Below, one piece after another: positions 1-11,937 of a DNA stretch of 12,323 nt (positions are counted from its first letter, which is position 1; each line of letters begins with the position of its first letter). Below the pieces are notes generated by a model that had not been told where the DNA came from, did no database searches, and saw nothing but the letters and a program-made list of their open reading frames with translations. The translations under genes and the position numbers were made by a program. This DNA is from Flavobacteriales bacterium. GTDB taxonomy: Bacteria; Bacteroidota; Bacteroidia; Flavobacteriales_E; Vicingaceae. Location: assembly GCA_029262915.1 (NCBI GenBank), contig JAJCYN010000258.1, positions 1 through 12,323 of the forward strand. The letters are read 5' to 3'.

Positions 1-216
1 GGGGTAATAATTCTTACACTTTTTTAGAGTTGGCTCATAATTAGTTACGACCCTCAAACAAGTGTTTCTTTCCTGCTCTAAGTATAGAGAGGGTTTGTAC
101 GATTGATATGTAAGCTTTAATGCTCCCATTTAACACATACAATAATACAGATTTTAGCTCGTAATACCATTATATCTACGACCCTAATTCCAGTTGAAAA
201 AGAAAAAAATGGGTAT
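1..216. other. Non-coding left flank, possible element end
   Basis: No credible gene is seen in this stretch downstream of the recombinase run and its terminator. It holds two copies of the 9-mer TACGACCCT in the same orientation (46-54 and 177-185) and a small hairpin, CTCTA-AGTA-TAGAG, near 77-90. Because it lies just outside the last recombinase gene, it is a reasonable place for an element end or attachment site. No matching inverted or direct copy of the 9-mer was noticed at the other side of the window, so this role is only a suggestion. Confidence 0.3.
46..185. repeat. 9-bp direct repeat pair TACGACCCT
   Basis: Identical 9-mers lie at 46-54 and 177-185, 131 bp apart, in the gene-free flank beside the recombinase genes. 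Both are preceded by AT-rich sequence. They could be binding repeats for a recombinase or the arms of an attachment site, but a pair of 9-mers in AT-rich DNA may also be chance. Confidence 0.3.
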
Positions 217-246
217 AAAAAAAGGCTTACTAATAACAGTAAGCCT
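217..246 (-). terminator. Rho-independent terminator of the recombinase run
   Basis: A perfect 9-bp inverted repeat, AGGCTTACT (223-231) and AGTAAGCCT (238-246), encloses a 6-nt loop. On the minus strand the stem is followed directly by a run of seven T residues (complement of 217-223). It lies 20 bp after the stop codon of the last recombinase gene (267), exactly where the leftward transcript should end. This is a textbook intrinsic terminator and marks the 3' end of the run. Confidence 0.92.
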
Positions 247-266
247 GATCCGTTGATAAAGGAGTT

Positions 267-1133
267 TTATAAAGGGTGGTATTCGTTTAAATCATTCTGT
301 AAATCATCTAAGTTGGTCAGTTGGTAATGCTCTGTGCTGCTCACATACCGATGTCCTGCCATGTGCTGCACTTCTCTGATATTGAACTTGCTTAACCAAT
401 GTGTGATTACGCTCATACGGATTTGTTTAGCAGATTTTACTTCAGGAACATATTTCTGAACATTCTTTAGCAATTTGGTAATACTATTGCTAAGTCGTAC
501 ACTTTGTCCAGTAGAAGTAAAGATTTTATCGGTCTCTTTTTCTGCTAATTCAAGGATTAAAGGTAATGTTTTGTCCAGGTATTCTTTTATCTCCAGTACT
601 TGATGAGCTGCTAATGGCAACATACGACTATTACTTCTTTTTCCTCCAGGAACATATACTTTCCCTTTTTTTAACTGGATGTCCTCTAGTTTAAGTTTAG
701 CCACTTCTTCTGTTTTTAACCCTTGGTAGATCATCATTCCTAAGATGACTTTGTTGCGTTTTCCTGCCAGTCCTTTGGTGGGATATTTTTCGTAAATATC
801 CTGTAGTTGTTCTTCATCTAATAAATCATGTGGTAATCGTCTGGATACGCCTTTTACAAAAAGGTTGTCTGCAACATTATCCTTTACCTTCCCTATTTTG
901 GTTAAGTAATTAAAGTAATGCCTGGCAACGGTAAGTTGCTGATTGATGTGTCGTTTGCTATTGCCTTTACTTCCTGCATATCGGATAAAGGTGAGCATAT
1001 CAGCATACCGTACATCTTCGGGTTTTAAATCTTCACTTTTAAACCATTCTAAAAGTTTGTTGGATGCTCGTATGTACCCCTCGATAGTATTGGTGCTTAA
1101 CTGCTTTTTTTCTAAGTATTGTTGAAAGTTCAT
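267..1133 (-). CDS. Degenerate tyrosine recombinase, nucleophile retained (fourth in run)
   Basis: A 288-residue phage-integrase-family protein with an N-terminal SAM-like core-binding region (about 1-95) and a C-terminal catalytic fold (about 105-275). Against the intact recombinase upstream, the first catalytic Arg is Lys140 (GLK where GLR is usual) and the HxxR His is Lys236. The beta-hairpin Lys165, second Arg239, His261 and the Tyr270 nucleophile are present. It is therefore the least decayed of the three small paralogues and might still cleave DNA. IntDOT of CTnDOT is a known active recombinase that lacks the usual first Arg. Its ATG shares one base with the stop codon of the preceding gene (TAATG), which implies translational coupling. 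A strong terminator follows it. Family assignment is secure; activity is not. Confidence 0.88.
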   Translation of the reverse strand: MNFQQYLEKKQLSTNTIEGYIRASNKLLEWFKSEDLKPEDVRYADMLTFIRYAGSKGNSKRHINQQLTVARHYFNYLTKIGKVKDNVADNLFVKGVSRRLPHDLLDEEQLQDIYEKYPTKGLAGKRNKVILGMMIYQGLKTEEVAKLKLEDIQLKKGKVYVPGGKRSNSRMLPLAAHQVLEIKEYLDKTLPLILELAEKETDKIFTSTGQSVRLSNSITKLLKNVQKYVPEVKSAKQIRMSVITHWLSKFNIREVQHMAGHRYVSSTEHYQLTNLDDLQNDLNEYHPL

Positions 1134-1591
1134 TAATAACGTTTTTTTAGTTGAGATGCAGCCTGTATGTAGTGGTGTCCTGCCATTTTAATGGTTTTTG
1201 TTAATCCATATTTCTCATGCCAATGAGCTAGCACACTTGCTCTAAGGTGGGTGTAAGAGGTAAATTGAGGGAACTGCTTTTTTAAGTCTTGGAGCATTTT
1301 ATTGGTAATGTTATTAAAGCGTTCTTTTTCTCCTAAAGAGATAAAAAGCTGATTACTCTCTTTTTCACTAATGGCCATAATGGTTAATCGTGTTTTAAGT
1401 AGGTAATGTTGTAAACTTTCTAATTGGATTTTATGGAGTTTTAAGGTTCTTTTTTTACCTGCAAAAGTGCTTGGTATTTTTATTTTTCGATTGGTTAAAT
1501 CAATGTGTTCAGGTTGCAAGTGTTTTAGTTCATCTTCGGTAAGGGCTTGGAACACTTTTATTCCTAAGATGACTTTGTTGCGTTTTCCTGC
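736..1591. repeat. 32-bp exact repeat shared by two recombinase paralogues (736-767 and 1560-1591)
   Basis: Positions 736-767 and 1560-1591 are identical over 32 bases in the same orientation. Each lies in the coding region for the helix that carries AGKRNKVILG, just before the degenerated first catalytic Arg. The two proteins are otherwise clearly diverged, so identity including synonymous positions is unexpected. The third paralogue has only partial identity at the corresponding place. Local gene conversion between neighbouring copies, or a recent duplication of this segment, would explain it. Confidence 0.75.
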
Positions 1592-1954
1592 TATTCCTTT
1601 AGGTTGCCATTGTTTAAAAATTCGCAACACTTCTTCATAGGATAGCAATGATGGTAAAGCTTGTTTATGGATGCCTTTAATGTACAGATCGGCTGCTAGT
1701 TTTTCATTGGCTGTTCCGGTAGATACTAACATATATCCATAATGACGAAGGGCAGTTAATGCCATGCTGATGGCGTGATTTTTAATTGATTTTTCTTGAA
1801 TATGATTGATATAACCTTGGAAGTGTTGTAAACAAAACTCATTCTCCTGAAGTTTAAAAGGAACTGCCCATTCTAAAAACAATTCGATGTCTTTTTTATA
1901 TTTCACTTGGATATTGGGACTGTGTTTTTTGAGGTAATTGTCAAGGTTTTCCAT
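1133..1954 (-). CDS. Degenerate tyrosine recombinase (third in run)
   Basis: A 273-residue integrase-like protein, close paralogue of the gene before it (shared HFQGYI, YGYMLV, ANEKLA and LYIKGI blocks). The SAM-like N-terminal region is kept. In the catalytic half the first Arg is Thr139, the HxxR His is Thr235, and the nucleophile position nine residues after His260 is Leu269. The hairpin Lys (about 167-168), Arg238 and His260 remain. A Tyr is the last residue (273), four places beyond the expected nucleophile. Strand cleavage is unlikely, but DNA binding and protein contacts through the recombinase fold could be kept. It begins 7 bp after the preceding gene's stop and overlaps the next gene by one base, so the three small genes are surely co-transcribed. 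The frame is intact, which suggests it is maintained rather than a decaying pseudogene. Confidence 0.85.
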   Translation of the reverse strand: MENLDNYLKKHSPNIQVKYKKDIELFLEWAVPFKLQENEFCLQHFQGYINHIQEKSIKNHAISMALTALRHYGYMLVSTGTANEKLAADLYIKGIHKQALPSLLSYEEVLRIFKQWQPKGIAGKRNKVILGIKVFQALTEDELKHLQPEHIDLTNRKIKIPSTFAGKKRTLKLHKIQLESLQHYLLKTRLTIMAISEKESNQLFISLGEKERFNNITNKMLQDLKKQFPQFTSYTHLRASVLAHWHEKYGLTKTIKMAGHHYIQAASQLKKRY

Positions 1955-1961
1955 CGTTCAC

Positions 1962-2771
1962 TTATTTATTAATGAGTTGATTAATGTATTCGTGTCCTGC
2001 CATTTCGATGGTTTTGTCTAATCCATATTGGGTGTACCAATGATACAATACACTTGCTTTGATTTGTGCATAGGAGATAATTTGAGGGTACTTACTTTTG
2101 AGTGAAGTCAGCAAGTTGTCGGTAATGTTTTTTCCTTTGGGGTTGCCACTTGTGGTGATGAAAAGTCTTTCATCTTCTTTATTGGCAATGATGAGTATTT
2201 TCGGACGAACATGATGCAGGTAATCATCTAATAAAGGGATTTGATGATTTTCTAAGGGGATCACTCTGCTCTTTCCTTTGTAAGTGTCAGGAATGGTTAA
2301 CGTTTTCTTTGTGAGATTAAGGTGTTCAGGACAAAGGTTAATCGCTTCTTCAGGAGTAATACCTTGGTAAATGATAAGATTGAGTACAGGTTTGTTGCGT
2401 TGTCCAACAATGCCAGGGGTATTAAAGTCATGGTACATTTGTTCGAGTTCGTTCCATTCAAAAAGTGATGGGAAAGGCGTTTTGTAAATGCCTTTGATGT
2501 ACAACTCCATTGCCAGTTTTTCGTTGGCTTTGTTATTCAATACTAGCATATATCCATAGTTCCTTAATGCAGATATACTCAGTCGTATTTTGTATTCTTT
2601 ATTATCTTCTTCTTGTAAATGGCTGATATATCCTTGGAAGTGTCCCAACTGTAGATCTTCTTGTTGAACGTTAAATTCGGCTAACCATTCTAAAAATAAG
2701 CGTACTCGCCAAACATAGCCTTCGGTAAGGCTTTTACTGTGTCCACTTAAATATTCCTTAAAATCATCCAT
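1962..2771 (-). CDS. Degenerate tyrosine recombinase, ends at the nucleophile position (second in run)
   Basis: A 269-residue integrase-like protein, the most decayed of the set. The N-terminal SAM-like region (about 1-95) and C-terminal recombinase fold are recognisable. The first Arg is Thr139, the HxxR His and Arg are Ala235 and Lys238, and the chain ends with Lys269, exactly where the Tyr nucleophile should be. The hairpin Lys167 and His260 are kept. It cannot cleave DNA by the usual mechanism. It starts 35 bp after the intact recombinase gene and 7 bp before the next paralogue. A role as architectural or targeting partner is an inference. A short C-terminal truncation at the Tyr is possible, but the remaining substitutions show that catalysis was already lost. 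Confidence 0.84.
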   Translation of the reverse strand: MDDFKEYLSGHSKSLTEGYVWRVRLFLEWLAEFNVQQEDLQLGHFQGYISHLQEEDNKEYKIRLSISALRNYGYMLVLNNKANEKLAMELYIKGIYKTPFPSLFEWNELEQMYHDFNTPGIVGQRNKPVLNLIIYQGITPEEAINLCPEHLNLTKKTLTIPDTYKGKSRVIPLENHQIPLLDDYLHHVRPKILIIANKEDERLFITTSGNPKGKNITDNLLTSLKSKYPQIISYAQIKASVLYHWYTQYGLDKTIEMAGHEYINQLINK

Positions 2772-2806
2772 TTTTAATTGTTTTATTCCTAGTAATTCTT
2801 TCTTAA

Positions 2807-3736
2807 TTAATAATCATCCGCAGTCATTGACTGCTCTTCTGCGATATGAGCATAGATTTGAGTACTCTCTATGCTTTTATGCCCCAAAAACTGACCGATT
2901 CGTTCGAGTTTCATTCCTCCCATTAATAGGTGAGTAGCAATACTGTGGCGAAGCGAGTGCAAGCCCACCTCTTTTTGTATGAGTTTTTCATTGCCTGTTT
3001 TTTCCTGTAATTGTTTGAACCGAAGCAGTAAACTTTGCCCGTTAATGCGTTCTCCTCTGGCACTTAAAAAGAACGCTTCGGTAGTTTTGTTGCTTTTTTG
3101 TAGCCCTGCTCGTCCACTTTTAATGTAATCAGCAAGGTATCTTGTTATTTTTTCTCTTACTGGAACATAGCGTTCGGTATAGTTTTTCCCTTTTCTGATG
3201 TAGAGCATTTGTCGGTCAAAAAGGATGTCGTTGACATCGAGTTGCACCCCTTCATTTCTGCGTAATCCACAACCATAGTAAACACTTAGTAATGCTCTAT
3301 CTCTTAATCCTAATACATCATCTTCGGTGGCATCAAAGAGAAGCTGTATTTCATGTAGCGTAAGAATGTCTTTGATGTTGCGTACTTGTTTAGGAGTAAC
3401 TACTTCTACTAAAAAACCTCCTTGTTCGGTTTGTCGTAAATAGGTGCTGAACCTTTTGATGGCTTGCAAGTGTTTGGCAATGTAATTATTACTTAACCCA
3501 CTGCCATTGCGTAAGTTCTTTCTGTGCCGAAGCATCTCGAAGTAGTCATCTATTAATTCCGCATTGATGCTGGTAATGTCCATAATGCCTTTGCCTTCTA
3601 ACCAACATAAAAATTCTCTGATGTTGTTCGGCATTCCATACACACTGGTGTTGGCATAACCGAGTACGCCTAACCATTCTCTAAAGCTGTGTTCTAACCG
3701 AACATATTCCCTGTATTCTAAGTTTAATTTTTTCAT
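2807..3736 (-). CDS. Tyrosine recombinase/integrase with complete catalytic set (first in run)
   Basis: A 309-residue XerC/XerD-like site-specific recombinase. It has an N-terminal SAM-like core-binding domain (about 12-105) and a catalytic domain (about 120-300). All expected residues are seen: Arg159 (GLRR), hairpin Lys184, His260 and Arg263 (HSLR), His286 (LGHKS) and Tyr295. It should cut and rejoin DNA at short core sites through a 3'-phosphotyrosine intermediate, and is the likely integrase/excisionase of the element. It lies between the primase-helicase gene (106-bp gap) and three degenerate paralogues. Unlike its neighbours it has a good ribosome binding site, AGAAAGG, 5 nt before the ATG. 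It is no closer to host XerC/D than a typical element integrase as far as can be judged by eye, so no gene symbol is given. Confidence 0.93.
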   Translation of the reverse strand: MKKLNLEYREYVRLEHSFREWLGVLGYANTSVYGMPNNIREFLCWLEGKGIMDITSINAELIDDYFEMLRHRKNLRNGSGLSNNYIAKHLQAIKRFSTYLRQTEQGGFLVEVVTPKQVRNIKDILTLHEIQLLFDATEDDVLGLRDRALLSVYYGCGLRRNEGVQLDVNDILFDRQMLYIRKGKNYTERYVPVREKITRYLADYIKSGRAGLQKSNKTTEAFFLSARGERINGQSLLLRFKQLQEKTGNEKLIQKEVGLHSLRHSIATHLLMGGMKLERIGQFLGHKSIESTQIYAHIAEEQSMTADDY

Positions 3737-3741
3737 GTGTA

Positions 3742-3748
3742 CCTTTCT
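3742..3748 (-). promoter_or_regulatory. Shine-Dalgarno sequence of the intact recombinase
   Basis: The minus strand reads AGAAAGG followed by 5 nt and the ATG at 3736. It is one of the few convincing Shine-Dalgarno sites in the window and supports this start codon. Confidence 0.7.
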
Positions 3749-3757
3749 TTAATTGAG

Positions 3758-3805
3758 CAGACCACAAGGGGTAATTTATTGATATTAAGTTGGTTTGGTG
3801 GTCTG
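3758..3805. repeat. 8-bp inverted repeat in the primase-recombinase intergenic
   Basis: CAGACCAC (3758-3765) is the exact reverse complement of GTGGTCTG (3798-3805). They are separated by 32 AT-rich bases. The spacing is too long for a normal intrinsic terminator and there is no U tract. Inverted arms around a spacer are the usual form of a recombinase or replication-protein site, so this may be a cis-acting site of the element. Confidence 0.55.
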
Positions 3806-3816
3806 TTTTGATAAAT

Positions 3817-3844
3817 GAACCACCCTGAACCACTCGAACCACTC
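3817..3844. repeat. Three tandem 9-10 bp repeats (GAACCACYC)
   Basis: GAACCACCCT, GAACCACTC and GAACCACTC follow each other without gaps, with the last reaching into the stop codon of the primase-helicase gene (3843-3845). On the minus strand they read GAGTGGTTC twice and then AGGGTGGTTC. The GTGG core recurs in the inverted repeat 12-60 bp away. Short iterated sequence between a replication gene and an integrase gene is consistent with an iteron-like origin or accessory recombinase sites, which is an inference. Confidence 0.6.
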
Positions 3845-6524
3845 AAGCAATTACGCCTTCCTTTTTTCGCTTAATTTGGTCTAATAATTTATCCAGTAGA
3901 TAGTCTATGGAATGTTTTAATTTTTGATATTCTTCATAACTGGTTACTTCATAGGTGTAACCTCTTGTTTTGTTGCCTCCTGTTATTTTAAGGTGTCCGC
4001 AATTGAGTAATTCAGGCAAGTACCGTTTTAAACTGGATGCCGATACTTGCAACTCTACTCTTAATTCTGCTGTTTTAAATTGTTCTTTTTTATGATCTTT
4101 CAACCATTTCTTGATGCGTTCAAAAAAGTGTCGGGAAGGGTCAGTCAGCTCGTCTGCTTTTCGTAGGAGTACATCTTTAATGAGTTGGTTTGCCCAAGCA
4201 ATGTCTTCTATGGTGGTTTCAATAAAGTTCTCTCCAGTATTTTTATCTACGGACATTGTCCGTTGGTATTGATGGTAGAGGGTAATGATTTCAATAAAGC
4301 GTAAATAGATACCATTGATTCTACGTTTCTTCTTGGTTTTAAGCGGGATTTTTAAGTCTGGTGCATAAGGATTGACTACTTTAATCGGTTTTAGTGTACG
4401 TTGCACATTGCGTAAGATTTGTCGATATTTTAATTCTTCTTCTTTATTGATTTTTCCTGCGGATGCTGCCCGTTGGTAAGCCATGATTCGTTCGTCTTGT
4501 TCGGCACTTCCATCTATGTAAATGAGGATGCTTCGATTGGCATTGTCTTCATAGATTTTGTTTTTGGTGGTACATCCTGCAATACATACGGGACCATAAA
4601 CAGTAATGTTGATTGCTTTTAATGTTCCTTTACTGTCTTTGATGCTCACTCTTTTGGTGATTTTTTGTTTGGTTTGCAGTTCTCGTAAAGGGTAAAGCAC
4701 TTCCTGAGCACCGTCCATATCTTCTATGATCAGGACTTTGTTGGCGATTTCTCCATCTTGTAAATAGTAAAGGGCATTTCCACTAATGGAGGTAATTTCC
4801 AGTTTCGCTTCTTCAGGAAGCAATTTTGCAATACCATCTTGCAAGTGGGTTTTGCCTGTTCCGCTTGCTCCAAAGCTGATAATGTGTAAGGGTTCATCTG
4901 TTATTCTGCTTAAAAACACGAGGTACATGATGATCCGATTATTGATTTCGCCAACAATGCCTGTTTTTCCTAAATCTTCCATTGTTCGCTCCATCAAGTT
5001 TTTTTCTTTCAGGTAACTTTCTGTACTGGTTAATTCGTGGGGAGTAATGGTAGTGCTTGTTACCTGTTGTGGCTGCATTTGATTGATGCGATTAATCCGA
5101 TAGTTTTCTAATTGTTCGATTAAATCCTGTAATGTTTGACGTGCTATTTCTGTTTGTACATCCAGTTGTTCGTTGAGGGTTTTGATTAATCGGGTAAGTT
5201 GATCGTTATTGTATAAATCTAATATTTGTCTCAAAGGGGCATAATGAGAGGCTTTCACTTGTATTTTTAGGGTGACTTTCATTCGCTCTAATCCACTTAT
5301 TTTGATGCCTCCAAGTACCGTAATGTCTAGTTCTTTGGTTTCATAGGTTAATGCTTCGTGATTACTACTATTAAATTTCGGAGCATTAATGGATTCAACG
5401 GCTTGGATGGTAATGCCTGTTTCACTAGAAGGATTATAACTGATTTTACGTTCGTTGATAAGCGTTTCTAAACATTCTCCATCATAGGTGGTGTACAAGC
5501 TATTGATGTCTTCTTCTTCGGGAGTGTTCACATGACTAATGATTACACCGGGCAATAAAAAGTGAAGTTCTTGGGCATATTTGGCTACTGCTTTGCGACC
5601 TGCATCATCTCCATCAAAAAATAAAATAATTTCTTCGAGTTTTTTTAATTGCTGAATAGCCTCGATGTGTTCTTGAGTTAAACGGTTTGTTCCGTAAGCT
5701 GCCAATAAGCTATATTTTTTAAGGATAGAAGGTATTTGTAACAATGTTGCTGCATCTATGATACATTCAGGAATAATCAGCTTTTTAGTATTCTTTGGAG
5801 GATAAGAGGGGTATAAGCCTTGGGTATTTTTGAGATAATAATGTTTGGCTTTGTCGTTGTCGTAGATGCTCCGCCCATACATACTAACGATTTGTCCTTC
5901 TTGATTTTTTAAAGGAAAAATAATGCAGTTTTTAGCAAAAACACGGTAGCCTCCTGATGGATTTTTGGTTAACAAATGAATGGCTAGATAGCTATCAATG
6001 TATTGGCTGTTTTCTCTTTGGTGTATTTGGGCACTGTTGTAACCAAGTGTAGAGTCTGCGGAGGCTAACAAATTGATGTCTAAGCCTCTTTCTTCTAAAA
6101 ATTGTTTGATTTGTGGACTACTTCTTCTAATGCCCGATTTAAAATAATCAAAAACTTTATTGAGTGCAGCTACTCTATCTAAGAGTGGAGCTTGTGTTTC
6201 TTTTGTTTCAACTGGTTGAACAGTTGGTTTTGGAACGGATGGAGCTGCAACGGTAGTGGTAGTTACCAATGCTGTTGCTTTTTGGATGGCTTCGTATTTA
6301 GTAGTCTTCTCGAACTTCATAATAAAATCAATCACATCTCCACTTCCTGCATCACAATTGCTACTGAAACACGTCCAACTGTTTGTTTTAGGATAGATTT
6401 GTAAGGAGGGTGTTTTATCGGGATGCCAAGGACAATTCAACCGATTATTCTTATCAGGCTTTAATTTGTAGTAGCCAAGAACCTTTTCTAGGGTTAAATT
6501 GCGTTTGATTTCTGGTATTTTCAT
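3843..6524 (-). CDS. Primase-helicase: CHC2 zinc finger, TOPRIM and P-loop ATPase
   Basis: An 893-residue replication protein. The CHC2-type zinc finger at 31-57 has Cys31, His34, Cys52 and Cys57. A linker and a DnaG-like catalytic core follow, with TOPRIM residues Glu253 and Asp304/Asp306 (FFDGDDAGR). A middle region (about 360-500) has no recognised fold and some coiled-coil character. The ATPase has Walker A GASGTGKT (552-559) and Walker B VLIIED (597-602), probably an AAA+/helicase-like motor. The C-terminal 80 residues look like a winged helix (about 815-875). It should synthesise RNA primers and unwind DNA, as in phage or plasmid primase-helicases. It diverges from an XRE regulator and heads the recombinase run, so it is probably the element's replication protein rather than host DnaG. 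The ATPase is not a typical DnaB RecA-fold helicase by its motifs, and its exact class is unsure. Confidence 0.9.
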   Translation of the reverse strand: MKIPEIKRNLTLEKVLGYYKLKPDKNNRLNCPWHPDKTPSLQIYPKTNSWTCFSSNCDAGSGDVIDFIMKFEKTTKYEAIQKATALVTTTTVAAPSVPKPTVQPVETKETQAPLLDRVAALNKVFDYFKSGIRRSSPQIKQFLEERGLDINLLASADSTLGYNSAQIHQRENSQYIDSYLAIHLLTKNPSGGYRVFAKNCIIFPLKNQEGQIVSMYGRSIYDNDKAKHYYLKNTQGLYPSYPPKNTKKLIIPECIIDAATLLQIPSILKKYSLLAAYGTNRLTQEHIEAIQQLKKLEEIILFFDGDDAGRKAVAKYAQELHFLLPGVIISHVNTPEEEDINSLYTTYDGECLETLINERKISYNPSSETGITIQAVESINAPKFNSSNHEALTYETKELDITVLGGIKISGLERMKVTLKIQVKASHYAPLRQILDLYNNDQLTRLIKTLNEQLDVQTEIARQTLQDLIEQLENYRINRINQMQPQQVTSTTITPHELTSTESYLKEKNLMERTMEDLGKTGIVGEINNRIIMYLVFLSRITDEPLHIISFGASGTGKTHLQDGIAKLLPEEAKLEITSISGNALYYLQDGEIANKVLIIEDMDGAQEVLYPLRELQTKQKITKRVSIKDSKGTLKAINITVYGPVCIAGCTTKNKIYEDNANRSILIYIDGSAEQDERIMAYQRAASAGKINKEEELKYRQILRNVQRTLKPIKVVNPYAPDLKIPLKTKKKRRINGIYLRFIEIITLYHQYQRTMSVDKNTGENFIETTIEDIAWANQLIKDVLLRKADELTDPSRHFFERIKKWLKDHKKEQFKTAELRVELQVSASSLKRYLPELLNCGHLKITGGNKTRGYTYEVTSYEEYQKLKHSIDYLLDKLLDQIKRKKEGVIA

Positions 6525-6552
6525 TTACTTTGTTAAAGCTTATTTGTTTGTG

Positions 6553-6560
6553 CAAATATA
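6553..6560 (-). promoter_or_regulatory. TAnnTTTG promoter element of the primase-recombinase run
   Basis: The minus strand carries TATATTTG, a match to the Bacteroidota -7 consensus, 28 nt before the primase ATG. The expected start site leaves a leader of roughly 25 nt without a clear Shine-Dalgarno. A convincing -33 element is not seen. A 10-bp AT palindrome (TTTTATAAAA, 6572-6581) lies just upstream and could be an operator shared with the divergent XRE gene. Confidence 0.55.
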
Positions 6561-6662
6561 GCAATAGAAGTTTTTATAAAATCATATAAGGATGTATTTA
6601 ATTGAAAAAAGTTTTTAAATGATTCCTATTACATTTTAGCTGATTATACCCGTTGAAATCAT

Positions 6663-6670
6663 TAAATTTG
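6663..6670 (+). promoter_or_regulatory. TAAATTTG promoter element, XRE gene 1, probably leaderless
   Basis: TAAATTTG matches the Bacteroidota -7 element. Its final G is separated from the ATG (6675) by only 4 nt, so transcription should begin at or within a base or two of the start codon. The GGAG at 6670-6673 is a single base from the ATG, too close to act as a Shine-Dalgarno. Confidence 0.65.
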
Positions 6671-6674
6671 GAGC

Positions 6675-7076
6675 ATGGATAATTCCAACGAGTTACTGAA
6701 TAATATAGGAGAAAATCTCCGCTCTTTTAGAATATCTAAAGGACTGGAGCGAAAAGAGATAGCTGATATCTCAGGTATTTCTGTTTCTCAGTATGGCAGG
6801 ATAGAGAACGGAACGACCAAGGCTTCTGTTTTAATGTTGGTAAAGATTGCTAAAGCCCTAAATGCAGGAATAGATGAGTTAGTTTTTGGTGAAAGAATGA
6901 AAACCGATGATGATTCAATTGTACTAAACGATAAAGAGCTTGTGCAAAAAATGAAGGAGTTGGATGAGTTAAATGATGAAGATAAAGAAGTAGCTCATCA
7001 ATTACTTGATCTTATTCTTACTCAAAAGAAATTAAACGAATTGACTAATAGTTTTCAGAAGTTGTCTAAGAAATAA
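6675..7076 (+). CDS. XRE-family HTH regulator 1
   Basis: A 133-residue DNA-binding protein. The HTH_3/XRE domain spans about 10-68 (NIGENLRSFRISKGL, then a recognition-helix region with ISVSQYGRIENG). The C-terminal half is charged and probably helical, with a KMKELDEL block also present in its paralogue 2.5 kb away, likely for dimerisation. It diverges from the primase-helicase gene with 150 bp between the starts. It is therefore the natural candidate for repressor of the element genes and of itself, although no experiment is implied by the sequence. The ATG is chosen because no in-frame start follows before the HTH and because the promoter lies directly against it. A convergent MORN gene follows after a bidirectional hairpin. 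Confidence 0.9.
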   Translation: MDNSNELLNNIGENLRSFRISKGLERKEIADISGISVSQYGRIENGTTKASVLMLVKIAKALNAGIDELVFGERMKTDDDSIVLNDKELVQKMKELDELNDEDKEVAHQLLDLILTQKKLNELTNSFQKLSKK

Positions 7077-7096
7077 AATAACTTAAGATTTCAGAC

Positions 7097-7123
7097 TTCA
7101 ATTAGGTCTTAAACCTAATTGAA
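7097..7123. terminator. Hairpin between convergent genes, probably bidirectional terminator
   Basis: A perfect 11-bp inverted repeat, TTCAATTAGGT (7097-7107) and ACCTAATTGAA (7113-7123), with a 5-nt loop. It lies between the stop codons of the rightward XRE gene (7076) and the leftward MORN gene (7133). U tracts are weak on both sides, but position and perfect stem favour a terminator for both transcripts. Confidence 0.72.
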
Positions 7124-7132
7124 TATTAGTTG

Positions 7133-8005
7133 CTATTCCGTACTTATCAGTTCTCCATTTTTATAGTGTTCAGTTTTTATCAAACCACCATCTTTGGAGT
7201 AATATTTCCAATATCCACTTTTGAAGTTAAAGGGAAGTTTTGCCATTTGATAATACTTTAGTTCAGTATTAGAGTATTTCTTTTGTAAAGAATCTATATT
7301 TTTAGAGGTAATATAAATAGCATCTATATCTTCATTAAAATGCCCCTCATTTTCTAATTGTCCATTTTTATAATACATCTTCCAAACACCACTTTTAGCA
7401 TTGTTTTTGTACTGCCCTTCTATCCAAAGTTGTTTTATTGGTTCTTGATAAAAAGTCTCCCATTTTCCATTCAAAGCACCATTAGCAAAATTCTTCCTAT
7501 TTTTCACATACCCATTAGGGTATCTAAAAATCCATTCTCCATTTTGTTTTCCATTTTCCCATTTTCCAACTCTAATTGTTCCTGATGTAGGATAATAAGT
7601 ATGACTAATTCCATGATAAGTTATTTTGTAATTTTTATCATATAAAGCATTATAAAAACCCGAAAGATAAAACTTACTATTTTCTATTTCAAAATAAGGA
7701 GAAGTGAGAATAGCATCCTGCTCAACACCCCAGGTCATTTTTTGATCAGAATAATATTTCACAACAGCTTCTTTGTTTTCTAAATAAGTAATTGTTTTAT
7801 AGCTTTTTCCATTTTTTAAATAAAAGTACCATACCCCATAACGTTTTTCACCTCTCACTTCTCCGTATGCTTCAATATTTCCTTCAGTATCATAAAGAGT
7901 GTCTATGCTGATTGGGGTAGTAGATTTAGAATGTGAAAAATCGTTAATTTGAGCAAACATCTCATTTAATGTAAATGATAACAGTATTACAAATATTATA
8001 CGCAT
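7133..8005 (-). CDS. Secreted MORN-2 (YwqK-like) repeat protein
   Basis: A 290-residue protein with a signal peptide (residues 1-18, cleavage likely after MFA) and several MORN-2 repeats of the GxWxxYxxNGxL type, best seen around 48-75, 145-198, 196-223 and 262-288. It should be exported to the periplasm or cell surface. Databases often name this family YwqK antitoxin, but that label says little about function. The gene starts 11 bp after the RHS-tip gene, on the same strand, and is surely co-transcribed. By position it could be the immunity or partner protein of the RHS C-terminal domain. That is inference, since neighbourhood alone supports it. The DNA appears more AT-rich than the recombinase genes. 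Confidence 0.85.
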   Translation of the reverse strand: MRIIFVILLSFTLNEMFAQINDFSHSKSTTPISIDTLYDTEGNIEAYGEVRGEKRYGVWYFYLKNGKSYKTITYLENKEAVVKYYSDQKMTWGVEQDAILTSPYFEIENSKFYLSGFYNALYDKNYKITYHGISHTYYPTSGTIRVGKWENGKQNGEWIFRYPNGYVKNRKNFANGALNGKWETFYQEPIKQLWIEGQYKNNAKSGVWKMYYKNGQLENEGHFNEDIDAIYITSKNIDSLQKKYSNTELKYYQMAKLPFNFKSGYWKYYSKDGGLIKTEHYKNGELISTE

Positions 8006-8016
8006 AATAGTCTTAA

Positions 8017-9054
8017 TTAATTATCAATTTCTTGGTATGTTTCAGTACTTGTCGTTGTTTCAGTTACATCATAACTAAATCCATCTGTACCATCATTGCT
8101 ATTCCCTATTACTTGAATAGAGTATGAAGAGTTTGCAGGGACATTGAATGAGTAATTTCCTCCATCCAAACCACTGAATGTATTTATCACATTTCCATCT
8201 TGATTGAGTATATTAATAGTGTTAGGAACAGAATTACCCGCATTAAAAGCAATATTTACTAAAACATTTGTAGATGAATTTCCTGAGGTAAACCCTTTTG
8301 AGAAAACACCTCTGTTATTACTGGCAAAATTTGATTGAAAGGACTCTATCTCTTGAGTTGAAGGCACTTCTCTTGTAGCTGTTCGATATTGATTATTTGT
8401 TATTCCTCCATCTATTGTAAAGTGATTACCCCAATCTCCACTTGGATCAAGCAAACCAGAAACAGGTTTAAGACCTCCATTACCATCAGGAATCGATAAA
8501 CCTCCATTATCATTCTTTACCATTTCTCCATACCTTTCTTGTAGTTGTTTAAATGCCCAGTCACCTTGAGTGGTGGAAACAGTTTGACCATTATAATCAA
8601 CTTGAAAAGGTTTGTTGTAACCATCTTCAGCTAAAAACACTTGTATTTGAGTAGTTCCATCTCCCATATCAGTCCCACGAACTTTATAATGTTCCAGTCC
8701 TTCTAGATCTATGCCATCAATTACTCTGTTTTCTGCAAATGCATAAGGACTATTCCAAGGATATTTCATACTCAAAGGATCTATACTTAAGAACCTTCCT
8801 AACCTTGGATCATGTATTCTGTATGAGAAAGCGACACTATTTCCTTCTCCTTTGATTTCAGGATCTCCTTCCTGTCCTTGGAAACCGTAACGATAATCAG
8901 AACCTCCTGTATATCTTCCAGGCATCAAACTTCCAAAATTATAGTAATAGTCAGGGTGGGTCGTAGATGATACAATGGACACAAATTTTTCACCCAAATT
9001 GAAATTTAAAAATTTGGAGTTTTGATTGAATAATATTTGATCTCTCAATTGCAT
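8017..9054 (-). CDS. RHS-repeat core domain tip with unrecognised C-terminal domain
   Basis: 345 residues from the ATG at 9054. An upstream TTG at 9063 is in frame but lies inside the promoter element. Residues about 35-121 form the RHS-associated core end ([55 protein letters not shown]). Complete RHS proteins have thousands of residues of YD repeats before this point; none are here, and no signal peptide is seen. This is therefore a detached tip, a displaced C-terminal cassette or a remnant. The remaining 225 residues are Gly/Asn/Thr-rich and look beta-rich near the end (an Ig-like or adhesin-like sandwich is possible). No nuclease or other toxin motif is recognised. It has its own promoter and is followed closely by the MORN gene. 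Confidence 0.82.
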
Positions 9055-9060
9055 GAATAA

Positions 9061-9068
9061 CAAATTTA
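9061..9068 (-). promoter_or_regulatory. TAAATTTG promoter element of the RHS-tip gene
   Basis: The minus strand reads TAAATTTG, then 6 nt, then the ATG at 9054, so the leader would be 0-3 nt. An inverted repeat ATTAGT (9072-9077) / ACTAAT (9100-9105) lies upstream, between this promoter and that of the divergent XRE gene, and may be an operator. The presence of a promoter shows the tip is expressed on its own rather than as part of a long RHS gene. Confidence 0.55.
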
Positions 9069-9128: not shown

Positions 9129-9143
9129 TACCTCGTAAATCAT

Positions 9144-9151
9144 TAAATTTG
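9144..9151 (+). promoter_or_regulatory. TAAATTTG promoter element, XRE gene 2, probably leaderless
   Basis: Identical in sequence and spacing to the element before XRE gene 1: TAAATTTG, 4 nt, ATG at 9156. A TTG codon at 9165 with GGAG 10 nt before it is an alternative start. The conserved ATGGA in the repeat favours 9156. Confidence 0.62.
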
Positions 9152-9155
9152 GAGC

Positions 9156-9560
9156 ATGGAAGAATTGGATGTTTTGCAACAAAATATAGCTGAAAATATG
9201 CGTAGGTTGAGAAAATCAAATAACCTAACATACAAACAAGCTGCAAAAGCATTAGGTATATCCCTTACTCAATATACCCGAACAGAGAGAGGAACTGCAA
9301 ATACTTCTATAATTACCATTGCTAAAACAGCTCTTTTATATGAGGTGAGCATCCGCGAAATTGTTTTTGGAGAAAAACTAAAACAGACAACTAGGTCTTC
9401 AAAATTTCATAGAGATAAAAGCTTGAAAGAAAAAATGAAGGAACTAGATGAGCTAAGTAAAGCTGAAAAAGAAATAGCTTTTAAAATCCTAGATTTAGCA
9501 CTAAGTAAAAAAAGAATAAATAATCTTCTTCAAATTATTGATAATGCTAAAAAGCAGTAA
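9156..9560 (+). CDS. XRE-family HTH regulator 2
   Basis: A 134-residue paralogue of XRE regulator 1, with the HTH at about 10-68 (NIAENMRRLRKSNNL, then LGISLTQYTRTERG) and the same C-terminal KMKELDEL block. The two share layout and length, but the recognition helices differ, so their operators may differ too. It diverges from the RHS-tip gene (101 bp between starts) and is followed 82 bp later by the unknown 280-aa gene. Control of the RHS/MORN pair, of itself, or of the downstream gene is plausible but not shown. Two XRE paralogues flanking the RHS/MORN pair is noteworthy. Confidence 0.9.
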   Translation: MEELDVLQQNIAENMRRLRKSNNLTYKQAAKALGISLTQYTRTERGTANTSIITIAKTALLYEVSIREIVFGEKLKQTTRSSKFHRDKSLKEKMKELDELSKAEKEIAFKILDLALSKKRINNLLQIIDNAKKQ

Positions 9561-9590
9561 TTCTTTTTCTCCCTGTTTAAAATGAATAGC

Positions 9591-9598
9591 TAAATTTG
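9591..9598 (+). promoter_or_regulatory. Third TAAATTTG-GGAG-ATGGA start module
   Basis: TAAATTTG is followed after 4 nt by ATG at 9603, as at the two XRE genes; 9591-9611 matches 6663-6683 with one difference. Here the ATG opens a 16-codon ORF rather than an HTH gene. This promoter probably drives the 280-aa gene that starts at 9643. Confidence 0.6.
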
Positions 9599-9602
9599 GA
9601 GT

Positions 9603-9653
9603 ATGGATAATCACATGGTTTCATTACTTAAAAAATGTAGGGATGTCATTTGA
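9603..9653 (+). CDS. 16-codon leaderless ORF overlapping the next gene start
   Basis: ATG at 9603 opens a frame of 16 codons (MDNHMVSLLKKCRDVI) that stops with TGA at 9651-9653, 9 nt inside the following gene. It starts with the same MDN codons as XRE regulator 1 because the start module is copied. It may be a leader peptide coupling translation to the next gene, which lacks a spaced Shine-Dalgarno. Alternatively it is the true N-terminus of that gene: removing one base in the six-A run at 9630-9635 would join the two frames. It could also be a non-functional relic. Confidence 0.35.
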   Translation: MDNHMVSLLKKCRDVI

Positions 9654-10798: not shown

Positions 10799-11923
10799 CT
10801 AAGGGGTATTCAATAATTCTTTTTTTCTTTTTTCTTCTTCCTCTTTTAACCACCTTTTTTTAGTTTCTTTAGATATTTCAATTACACGTCCATCATCAAA
10901 TTTCCAAGTGGTTTTTTCGCTGTCTTTAATGTCCCATATTTCCATTACGTTGTCAGGCGAGATTTCTATTTCTCTAATGGTATCTGTTTCAGGATTAAAA
11001 ACAGGTTTGGGAGGGCAAACGCAATATTGATAATCGTGCCTATGAGGATATCCCCCATACATTCTCATTGTTGATTCTAAATCAGTTAATTTACAGTAAC
11101 TATCCAAATCCTCAATATATCTTCCTAAAAGCGTTGCTTTAGTTAAATCCTTACAAGCATATTCTTTATCGTGAAAAGCATTATAGTATAGTAGTCCTCT
11201 TTTCTCATACAACTCAGCCATATTAGAATCAAGATCAATTCCTTTTGTATAATCATCTCTTGCATGGCCAGGAGAACCATATTGTTCTCTAAAGTTTCCT
11301 CTGTTTAAATAATGAGTAGCAACTTTTGGTTCTTTTTTGATGCAATAATCATAATCTTTTTCTGCTGCATCAACTTGTTGTAAATAATGGTAATATATTG
11401 CCCGATAAGAATATGCTGTTATGAAGGTAGAATCTAATTCAATACATTTTGTGAGGTCTTCGATAGCATTTCCATAGTCGTACAACCCCGAATAGCTATA
11501 ATCGTTTGTACTGGGCATATAATACCTGTTTTTTATATTGTCAGCAAGCCAGACACTATCTTTTTTATGTTTTTTTATTTGTTTTGCTAAACTATCCGAA
11601 AAAACATCTACGAATGATGTTGAAATACCTCTGTAAAAATAACCGTAAGGATTATTAGGATTAATAAAAATGGCTTTATTGCTATAATCTATTGTTTTTT
11701 CCACCTTTCCAAGATTATAATAACAGGAAGCCAAGAGAGTGTAAGTTGAATCTGCTTCAGGGTTTAAAATAACAGCACTATCCAAATAATAAATTGCTGC
11801 TGCATTATTTCCTTGTTCAATTGCTTCATATCCTTTTTGGTAGTAATATTTGTAATCCCTTGGAACAATAAATGCCATTGAAACAATTATTACAAATAAA
11901 AATATGACCCATTTCTTTAGCAT
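10799..11923 (-). CDS. Membrane-anchored TPR-repeat protein
   Basis: 374 residues from the ATG at 11923. A TTG at 11932 is in frame but overlaps the promoter element. An N-terminal hydrophobic segment (about 4-20, KKWVIFLFVIIVSMAFIVP) acts as anchor or signal. Around six tetratricopeptide units follow: two near 25-95, then after an insertion with a long charged loop, three or four between about 145 and 270 (YSYRAIYYHYLQQVDAAEKD, YLNRGNFREQYGSPGHARDD). The C-terminal 100 residues are not TPR, with a strand-rich part and a Lys/Glu-rich tail. TPR proteins mediate protein contacts; the partner is unknown. It is followed closely by the small domain-II-like gene. Nothing ties it to the mobile element. 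Confidence 0.87.
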   Translation of the reverse strand: MLKKWVIFLFVIIVSMAFIVPRDYKYYYQKGYEAIEQGNNAAAIYYLDSAVILNPEADSTYTLLASCYYNLGKVEKTIDYSNKAIFINPNNPYGYFYRGISTSFVDVFSDSLAKQIKKHKKDSVWLADNIKNRYYMPSTNDYSYSGLYDYGNAIEDLTKCIELDSTFITAYSYRAIYYHYLQQVDAAEKDYDYCIKKEPKVATHYLNRGNFREQYGSPGHARDDYTKGIDLDSNMAELYEKRGLLYYNAFHDKEYACKDLTKATLLGRYIEDLDSYCKLTDLESTMRMYGGYPHRHDYQYCVCPPKPVFNPETDTIREIEISPDNVMEIWDIKDSEKTTWKFDDGRVIEISKETKKRWLKEEEEKRKKELLNTP

Positions 11924-11929
11924 AAGAGA

Positions 11930-11937
11930 CAAATATA
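11930..11937 (-). promoter_or_regulatory. TAnnTTTG promoter element of the TPR gene
   Basis: The minus strand reads TATATTTG, then 6 nt, then ATG at 11923, giving an expected leader of 0-3 nt. This is the same close arrangement as at the RHS-tip gene. No clear -33 element was found. Confidence 0.55.

What the first reader, a model, noticed from the sequence alone, without database searches (positions are those of the whole stretch)
267..6524. Primase-helicase plus one intact and three degenerate tyrosine recombinases: candidate undescribed mobile element core
Five genes run in one direction to a single strong terminator. The recombinase set keeps the fold but loses catalytic residues unevenly: the 309-aa protein is complete, and the next three lack the first Arg and HxxR His; two of them also lack the Tyr. 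Recombinase-in-trio elements and Tn554 show that multi-recombinase elements exist, but not, to my knowledge, with a CHC2-TOPRIM-ATPase primase and mostly inactive partners. A heteromeric recombination complex with one catalytic and several structural subunits is a plausible model.
Basis: partly seen in the sequence, partly recalled or inferred. Interest (0 to 1): 0.75.

Follow-up and report, generated by a model that had tools for sequence, protein, structure and literature searches.

The report
Mobile element swapping bacterial toxin tips
The window holds what looks like a mobile DNA element whose relatives in other bacteria insert into genes for large toxin-delivery proteins at a fixed spot and replace the toxin end of the protein in frame, which would give bacteria a dedicated way to exchange weapons.

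Summary
In detail: a DnaG-type primase fused to an MCM-like helicase, one intact tyrosine recombinase (R4) and three degenerate ones (R3, R2, R1) run on the minus strand. Relatives share a smaller kit: divergent HTH gene, (primase-)MCM ATPase, intact R4, degenerate R1. R2/R3 form a conserved side clade lacking the nucleophile. The key finding lies outside the given coordinates: these modules sit inside rhs polymorphic-toxin loci. In 48 of 48 module-core pairs the nearest Rhs core is on the module's strand. Eleven of 25 upstream cores end long reading frames; 20 of 23 downstream cores are cut-off tips with 6-86 residues before them. Tandem copies in three genomes, one assembled as a single contig, place the ends at the codons Pro/Ala-Phe-Gly before the core; two show that the unit carries its own core, toxin tip and immunity-position gene. 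Best explanation: a site-specific integrative element that inserts into toxin genes, adds its own tip in frame and displaces the old one. Excision, replication and the recombinase roles are inferred. The window copy spans about 1-8945; its tip is not attached to a full rhs gene. Nine paper searches showed no description.

The parts
1..12 (-). Probable recombinase-side end of the element: minus strand reads AAT TAT TAC CCC (Asn-Tyr-Tyr-Pro), the kind of codons that precede Phe-Gly at ends in relatives
   Evidence: Direct reading; other ends. The sequence goes on into contig C65 (141-base identical overlap).
223..246 (-). Intrinsic-terminator-like hairpin after R1
267..1133 (-). R1, degenerate tyrosine recombinase, the partner that recurs in relatives; keeps box-II Arg, His and Tyr, lacks the first Arg and the box-II His
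1133..1954 (-). R2, Tyr-less recombinase-fold protein
1962..2771 (-). R3, Tyr-less recombinase-fold protein; AF2 model closest to Xer recombinases
2807..3736 (-). R4, tyrosine recombinase with all six catalytic residues
3843..6524 (-). DnaG-type primase (CHC2, Toprim) fused to an MCM-like AAA+ ATPase
6675..7076 (+). Divergent HTH_3 protein, probable repressor (role inferred)
   Evidence: same divergent place in many relatives
7133..8005 (-). MORN-repeat protein in the immunity-gene position (role inferred)
   Evidence: MORN_2 below its cutoff; position by analogy with relatives
8017..8937 (-). Rhs-associated core (8695-8946 by TIGR03696) followed by the variable tip carried by the element (toxin activity not shown)
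8932..8945 (-). Probable tip-side end: codons Tyr-Asn-Phe-Gly at the insertion position seen in relatives; crossover not mapped in the window
9156..9560 (+). Second HTH gene, like the one at 6675; may be a remnant of an older upstream element

Best explanation
This is an autonomous, site-specific integrative element that targets polymorphic-toxin genes. Its unit is: att - Rhs core plus toxin tip - immunity gene - divergent HTH - (primase-)MCM ATPase - intact recombinase R4 - degenerate partner R1 (here also R2, R3) - att. Shown by sequence in relatives: where the ends lie (three genomes), that the unit carries its own tip (two genomes), that the frame of the host rhs gene runs on into that tip (11 of 25 upstream cores; others run off the contig, lie behind another copy, or are orphans), and that an old tip lies behind the recombinase genes. 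Inferred: R4 cuts while R1 (and R2/R3) hold or position DNA as non-catalytic partners; the element leaves as a circle, is copied by the DnaG-MCM protein and re-enters at Tyr-Pro-Phe-Gly codons in rhs genes; the HTH protein represses it. Entry replaces the toxin end of the protein and brings the matching immunity. The window copy lies in an eroded rhs array: its own tip has only 59 codons before the core.
For: Recombinase and ATPase queries, not rhs queries, found 33 module rows (32 distinct; one G074 copy counted twice). Nearest Rhs cores within 9 kb of R4 are on the module's strand in 48 of 48 module-core pairs (some cores serve two modules), upstream in 25 and downstream in 23 of 33 rows. 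Control in 10 genomes that I chose after seeing the maps: 26 of 26 module recombinase rows lie within 10 kb of a listed TIGR03696 core, against 3 of 60 other recombinase rows (my comparison, whose capped list shows 42 of these genomes' 47 cores). Tandem units: G074 offset 7333, 7341 identical positions; G309 offset 6749, 6784 identical; both hold the tip and end at CTTTTGGG and TATCCTTTTGGA.... In G717 (one contig of 5.4 Mb) two modules differ at one base and end at TTATTATCCTTTTGG before two different tips. Single tips match RNase, EndoU or HNH families; single next genes match Barstar, Imm33, Imm11. R4 complete in 30 of 30 rows; R1-like rows lack the first Arg in 31 of 32 and the box-II His in 31 of 32, keep Tyr in 30 of 31 readable.
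Against: No excision, circle or integration was observed, and no empty site was compared (referred step). Fourteen of 25 upstream cores are not preceded by a long frame: 4 run off the locus, 5 lie behind another copy, and 5 (window, L083, L088, L089, L090) are orphans without a seen reason. Downstream, L080's third module is followed by a core with 556 residues before it, L082 and L091 by 109 and 134. L043, L093, L095 (8.0-11.3 kb readable) and L096 (5.9 kb) show no core upstream; L038 and L083 none downstream with over 8 kb readable. Several elements enter further on, at Tyr-(Arg/Thr)-Tyr-Gly-Phe, and two held-out elements sit in genes without a detected Rhs core (G355, G580). On its recombinase side the window runs into C65, where only a short rhs-like stretch is visible. 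The window tip matches no Pfam family; at most 13 of 41 tips match any. R1 and R2/R3 roles have no direct test.
Confidence: 0.77

Rival explanations
1. Rhs tips are exchanged by ordinary homologous recombination in the conserved core, as in the C-terminal displacement model; the recombinase module is a passenger that settled in a dispensable, repeated locus.
For: An array of eight Rhs cores in G059 (L106) mostly shares rhs sequence before the Phe-Gly codons and looks like homologous displacement. In G717 the same module carries different tips, which also needs exchange inside the module or two independent entries.
Against: Unrelated element ends meet the rhs frame at the same codons in many loci; 20 of 23 downstream cores have only 6-86 residues before them, of sequence that I see as mostly not rhs; other recombinases of ten of these genomes are rarely near a listed core (3 of 60 rows).
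Confidence: 0.13
2. It is an ordinary integrative island that uses rhs genes as a safe harbour; the tip is only a replacement 3' end that keeps the target gene working, as some phages do (recalled).
For: Extra cargo such as PDC-S02 (YhcG-like) genes follows R1 in L032 and L085; restoring the 3' end of a target gene is a known trick (recalled).
Against: The new ends are not equivalent: past the core the 41 tips that I chose share almost nothing, and single ones carry different toxin domains, with different immunity families in single neighbours.
Confidence: 0.1
3. R1-R3 are decaying duplicates without function and only R4 matters.
For: They lack catalytic residues; R4 itself is frameshifted in one copy of G580 and truncated in one of G484, so decay does occur in this family.
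Against: R1 dN/dS 0.08-0.17 in 3 of 4 pairs; co-inheritance r 0.875; R3 relatives of 51-92% identity keep full length in 9 of 9, and R2 and R3 are separate supported clades. dN/dS of R2/R3 could not be computed.
Confidence: 0.08

Closest known systems
Rhs C-terminal displacement (Jackson 2009, PMC2935791; passages read)
   Same: Old tips are pushed downstream as core-plus-tip fragments; the authors propose circular intermediates.
   Different: [quoted passage not shown] here a recombinase module travels with the tip and ends lie at fixed codons.
GInt genomic islands (PMC5385486; abstract and part of the introduction seen)
   Same: Several tyrosine recombinases needed together, site-specific integration, variable cargo.
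   Different: GInts have three putative integrases plus a small helix-loop-helix protein; here one intact and one degenerate recombinase plus an MCM-like ATPase, and insertion into toxin genes.
rAID immunity arrays (PMC12247911; passages read) and recombinases beside polyimmunity loci (PMC3482391; passages read)
   Same: A Xer-like or tyrosine recombinase next to interbacterial-conflict genes.
   Different: Those are immunity-gene arrays with a recombinase; the passages seen describe no toxin-tip swap in frame and no helicase module.
Rhs-associated integrases of bee gut bacteria (PMC5727410; passages read)
   Same: Integrase-like genes near Rhs genes, suggested to help transfer and capture.
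   Different: No element, ends or mechanism in the passages seen; hosts are Snodgrassella and Gilliamella.
Rhs tips shared between Ornithobacterium and Bergeyella (PMC13183296; passages read)
   Same: Tips and immunity genes move independently of the Rhs scaffold.
   Different: Put down to the displacement mechanism; no recombinase element tied to rhs in the passages seen.
MCM-like helicases of SaPI and SCCmec elements (recalled)
   Same: MCM-type helicase on an integrative element, pointing to replication after excision.
   Different: Here fused to a DnaG-type primase in the window and several relatives; homology to those proteins not tested.
Tn554 and recombinase-in-trio elements (recalled)
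   Same: More than one tyrosine recombinase per element.
   Different: No toxin-gene targeting or helicase that I recall; not compared by sequence here.

Membership tests
Rhs polymorphic toxin locus | RHS-associated core followed by a variable C-terminal tip | tested here: met
   TIGR03696 39.1 bits against cutoff 32.5 in window 8020-9063; little conserved after the core in 41 chosen tips
Rhs polymorphic toxin locus | Immunity gene next to the tip | tested here: inconclusive
   Window neighbour has a weak MORN_2 match only; Barstar, Imm33, Imm11 in one relative each of 31 genes
GInt | Operon of three integrases plus a small helix-loop-helix protein | tested here: not met
   Usual modules hold two recombinases and an ATPase; the window holds four; no ginD search made; feature taken from the abstract
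Integron | IntI-type integrase | tested here: not met
   TIGR02249 92.5 (R4) and 36.4 (R1) bits against cutoff 265
XerC/XerD chromosome-dimer resolvase | Equivalog score of XerD | tested here: not met
   R4 169.2 and R1 131.8 bits against 329.6
rAID | Recombinase followed by an array of short co-oriented immunity genes | tested here: not met
   Gene maps by eye; feature from passages of PMC12247911
Site-specific integrative element | Complete tyrosine recombinase | tested here: met
   Window R4 and 30 of 30 R4-like rows have all six residues
Site-specific integrative element | Fixed ends with a short shared core | tested here: met
   Relatives G074, G309, G717; not mapped for the window copy
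Site-specific integrative element | Excised circular form | not testable with these tools
   No reads held
Tn554 / recombinase-in-trio | Homologous TnpA/B/C or three intact recombinases | not tested
   Family features recalled; no sequence comparison made

The most novel reading that the evidence does not exclude
Polymorphic toxins have their own class of transposing tip: an autonomous element that recognises conserved codons at the joint between delivery scaffold and toxin, inserts in frame, swaps the weapon and its antidote together, and stacks old weapons in a reversible array. Different lineages target different scaffolds (two codon sites in Rhs, and non-Rhs proteins such as the AHH-tipped one of G355 and the Cys-Glu-Leu site of G580). 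Strand exchange is done by one catalytic recombinase with dedicated dead partners, the most elaborate set seen here (one live, three dead) being the one in this window.
Probability: 0.6. Interest if true: 0.92.

Novelty: new variant of a known kind. Interest (0 to 1): 0.82.

Why it matters
How toxin tips move between polymorphic-toxin scaffolds has been put down to homologous recombination, with no integrase known to accompany Rhs (PMC2935791, passages). A recombinase element with mapped ends makes the question directly testable: look for the circle junction. It also offers a natural system for in-frame domain exchange at a defined site, a DnaG-MCM fusion, and a recombinase that travels with a conserved non-catalytic partner.

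Tried and rejected
R2/R3 relatives with readable DNA: genome-contig scans with R3 and with A1 gave none, viral contigs none, 45 other family genomes nothing above 30% identity, 397 genomes of G309's family none at 1e-35 (which warns that an empty answer shows nothing without a known positive). So dN/dS of R2/R3 and a shared five-gene order could not be tested.

Phage or plasmid origin: of 216 phage records none covers 80% of the primase-ATPase, and the 20 listed match only residues 3-363, the primase half; the 32 plasmid matches of R3 are all below 60% identity. Rejected as the source.

Anti-phage defence: PADLOC hits on the primase and HTH look generic to me; R4, R1, the immunity-position gene and the 280-aa protein had none.

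Sequence search of the PDB with the ATPase profile gave only weak hits that I judge irrelevant; the fold search was needed. R3 also resembles the regulators MrpR/YopR, so a regulatory role for R2/R3 is open.

Orphan-tip arrays as proof of the element: rejected, since the G059 array mostly shares rhs sequence before the codons. Contig break at the window's left edge as evidence of activity: suggestive only, because a branch 141 bases inside would look the same. Seen through the control: a different 384-aa recombinase abuts an rhs core in G243.

Full report
What is in the window. The window is the whole of contig C258 of a 72.6%-complete genome. A divergent HTH gene (6675-7076), an immunity-position gene (7133-8005) and an Rhs core with a tip (8017-9063) follow on the far side. 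No call names the organism; the genomes used are unnamed, and one named R3 relative is Pseudotamlana carrageenivorans, so Bacteroidota is likely but not shown.

Relatives. The ATPase query matched 43 of 46 genomes of the family; most of these are weak matches to frames of about 650 aa, which I take for host DnaG. Matches at 1e-60 or better come from nine genomes besides the window's own. A profile of R3 relatives matched 29 of 395 class genomes at 1e-20, the window's included. I read regions of 21 of those 29 (the window among them) and of five further family genomes. The maps show a recurrent module: divergent HTH, ATPase (with or without the primase half), R4-like, R1-like.

Recombinases. 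All 30 R4-like rows have all six residues. Of 32 R1-like rows, one of them truncated, 31 lack the first Arg and 31 the box-II His, 32 keep the box-II Arg, and 30 of 31 readable keep the Tyr. R4 and R1 are co-inherited. R1 evolves under constraint: NG86 dN/dS 0.153, 0.081 and 0.171 in three of four pairs, the fourth saturated; R4 0.166 and 0.152 in two of four. In the tree R2+R3 are one clade (100/100), nested in a 19-row group (96/96) that also holds window R1 and R1s of fused-primase elements; primase parts also occur outside that group. A profile search of the protein database finds the R2/R3 proteins in a score class of their own: 12 proteins, the window's R2 and one partial protein among them, at 219 bits or more, then 170 and below. 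R3's nine relatives all lack the Tyr.

The toxin target. A home-made Rhs-core profile placed cores around the modules. Of 33 rows (G074's second copy counted twice), 25 have a core upstream and 23 downstream within 9 kb, 17 both; all 48 module-core pairs are on one strand. Of the 25 upstream cores 11 follow frames of 161-1845 aa; 4 of the rest run off the locus, 5 lie behind another copy, 5 are orphans (window, L083, L088, L089, L090). Of the 23 downstream cores 20 have 6-86 residues before them, three have more (109, 134, 556) (my tally). Many modules without a core lie on short contigs, but not all: L043, L093 and L095 have 8.0-11.3 kb upstream without a core, L096 5.9 kb, and L038 and L083 more than 8 kb downstream. 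Cores are rare genome-wide: 1-33 matches per genome in 26 genomes, which I add up to 169 over about 98.6 Mb, so a same-strand core within 6 kb upstream is expected at roughly 0.5% of random places (my arithmetic).

Control. In ten of these genomes, chosen by me after the maps were seen, PF00589 has 86 matches. The 26 that belong to modules all lie within 10 kb of a TIGR03696 core listed; of the other 60, three do (G043:C61:67597, G243:C17:34062, and a fragment at G074:C40:31008). The list is capped and shows 42 of the 47 cores of these genomes.

Held-out test. The phylum search with the ATPase profile matched 12 of 395 genomes at 1e-30, seven of them new. I took regions from all seven. Five (G717, G475, G484, G156, G533) have Rhs cores on the module's strand. 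The other two do not, but G355's upstream gene ends in an AHH nuclease domain followed by a gene with a sub-cutoff Imm11 match, and G580's two copies and the frame behind them share leaders and exchange the C-terminal part of short proteins at the codons Cys-Glu-Leu. I read these as related elements in other toxin scaffolds, which is inference.

Ends. In G074 the two copies are identical over 7341 positions at an offset of 7333; in G309 over 6784 at 6749. The shared end sequence is CTTTTGGG in G074 and a 35-base stretch beginning TATCCTTTTGGA in G309; both encode the Phe-Gly of the Tyr-Pro-Phe-Gly motif (Asp-Ala-Phe-Gly at G074's outer flank). In G717, a genome of one contig, two modules with one difference over 7348-13211 end with TTATTATCCTTTTGG and then continue into different tips; this makes assembly error an unlikely explanation there. 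A second group seems to enter at Tyr-(Arg/Thr)-Tyr-Gly-Phe, and several of its displaced tips begin with a leader like MGCLKLTY.

Cargo. In 41 tips that I chose, little is conserved past the core. Single members match RNase, EndoU, AHH, HNH_4, peptidase C39 and lipase families, 13 families in all; of 31 following genes single ones match Barstar, Imm33 and Imm11, two match TPR families. Most members matched nothing informative.

The helicase. The AF2 model (pLDDT 84.2, pTM 0.50) matches DnaG primases in part and MCM helicases; TM-scores over the whole chain are low (about 0.25), as expected if each match covers one half. A replicative role is inferred.

The window copy. Its tip has 59 codons before the core, so it is not attached to a full rhs gene here. 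Its other end reads Asn-Tyr-Tyr-Pro at bases 12-1 and continues in C65 with a short rhs-like stretch (Gly-Ser-Leu-Ile-Pro-Asn, my reading) and then genes that look phage-like to me (not tested). I take the element as about 1-8945 in an eroded array; neither end is mapped by a copy comparison.

Literature. Nine searches of the held library showed no description of this element in their listings; most subscription papers are outside it. The known pieces are listed under Closest known systems with what I saw of each.

Noticed in passing
L106 (G059:C9:328000-345000): Array of eight co-oriented Rhs cores that mostly share rhs sequence before the Phe-Gly codons; looks like homologous C-terminal displacement.
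   Followed up: partly
L032:6156-7229, L085:2000-3046, L094:9489-10550: YhcG-like PDC-S02 candidate defence genes directly after R1 (PADLOC tested for the first two only).
   Followed up: partly
L032, L035, L041, L092: Displaced tips begin with a conserved leader like MGCLKLTY, probably supplied by the element end.
   Followed up: partly
L120/L121 (G580): Related tandem element at a non-Rhs site; the displaced part is preceded by a leader that looks like a signal peptide; copy 1 R4 is frameshifted.
   Followed up: partly
G243:C17:33648-34538: A different 384-aa tyrosine recombinase abuts an Rhs core on the same strand.
   Followed up: no
window 6660-6677, 9142-9158, 9590-9604: Repeated promoter-like (T)AAATTTGGAG just before the ATG of both HTH genes and of a third short frame (Bacteroidota -7 motif, recalled).
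   Followed up: no
window 1-141 and G000:C65:8333-8473: Assembly overlap of 141 bases; the contig starts exactly at the presumed element end.
   Followed up: partly
window 10799-11932: TPR protein; two of 31 immunity-position genes in relatives match TPR families, so this may belong to an older upstream element.
   Followed up: no
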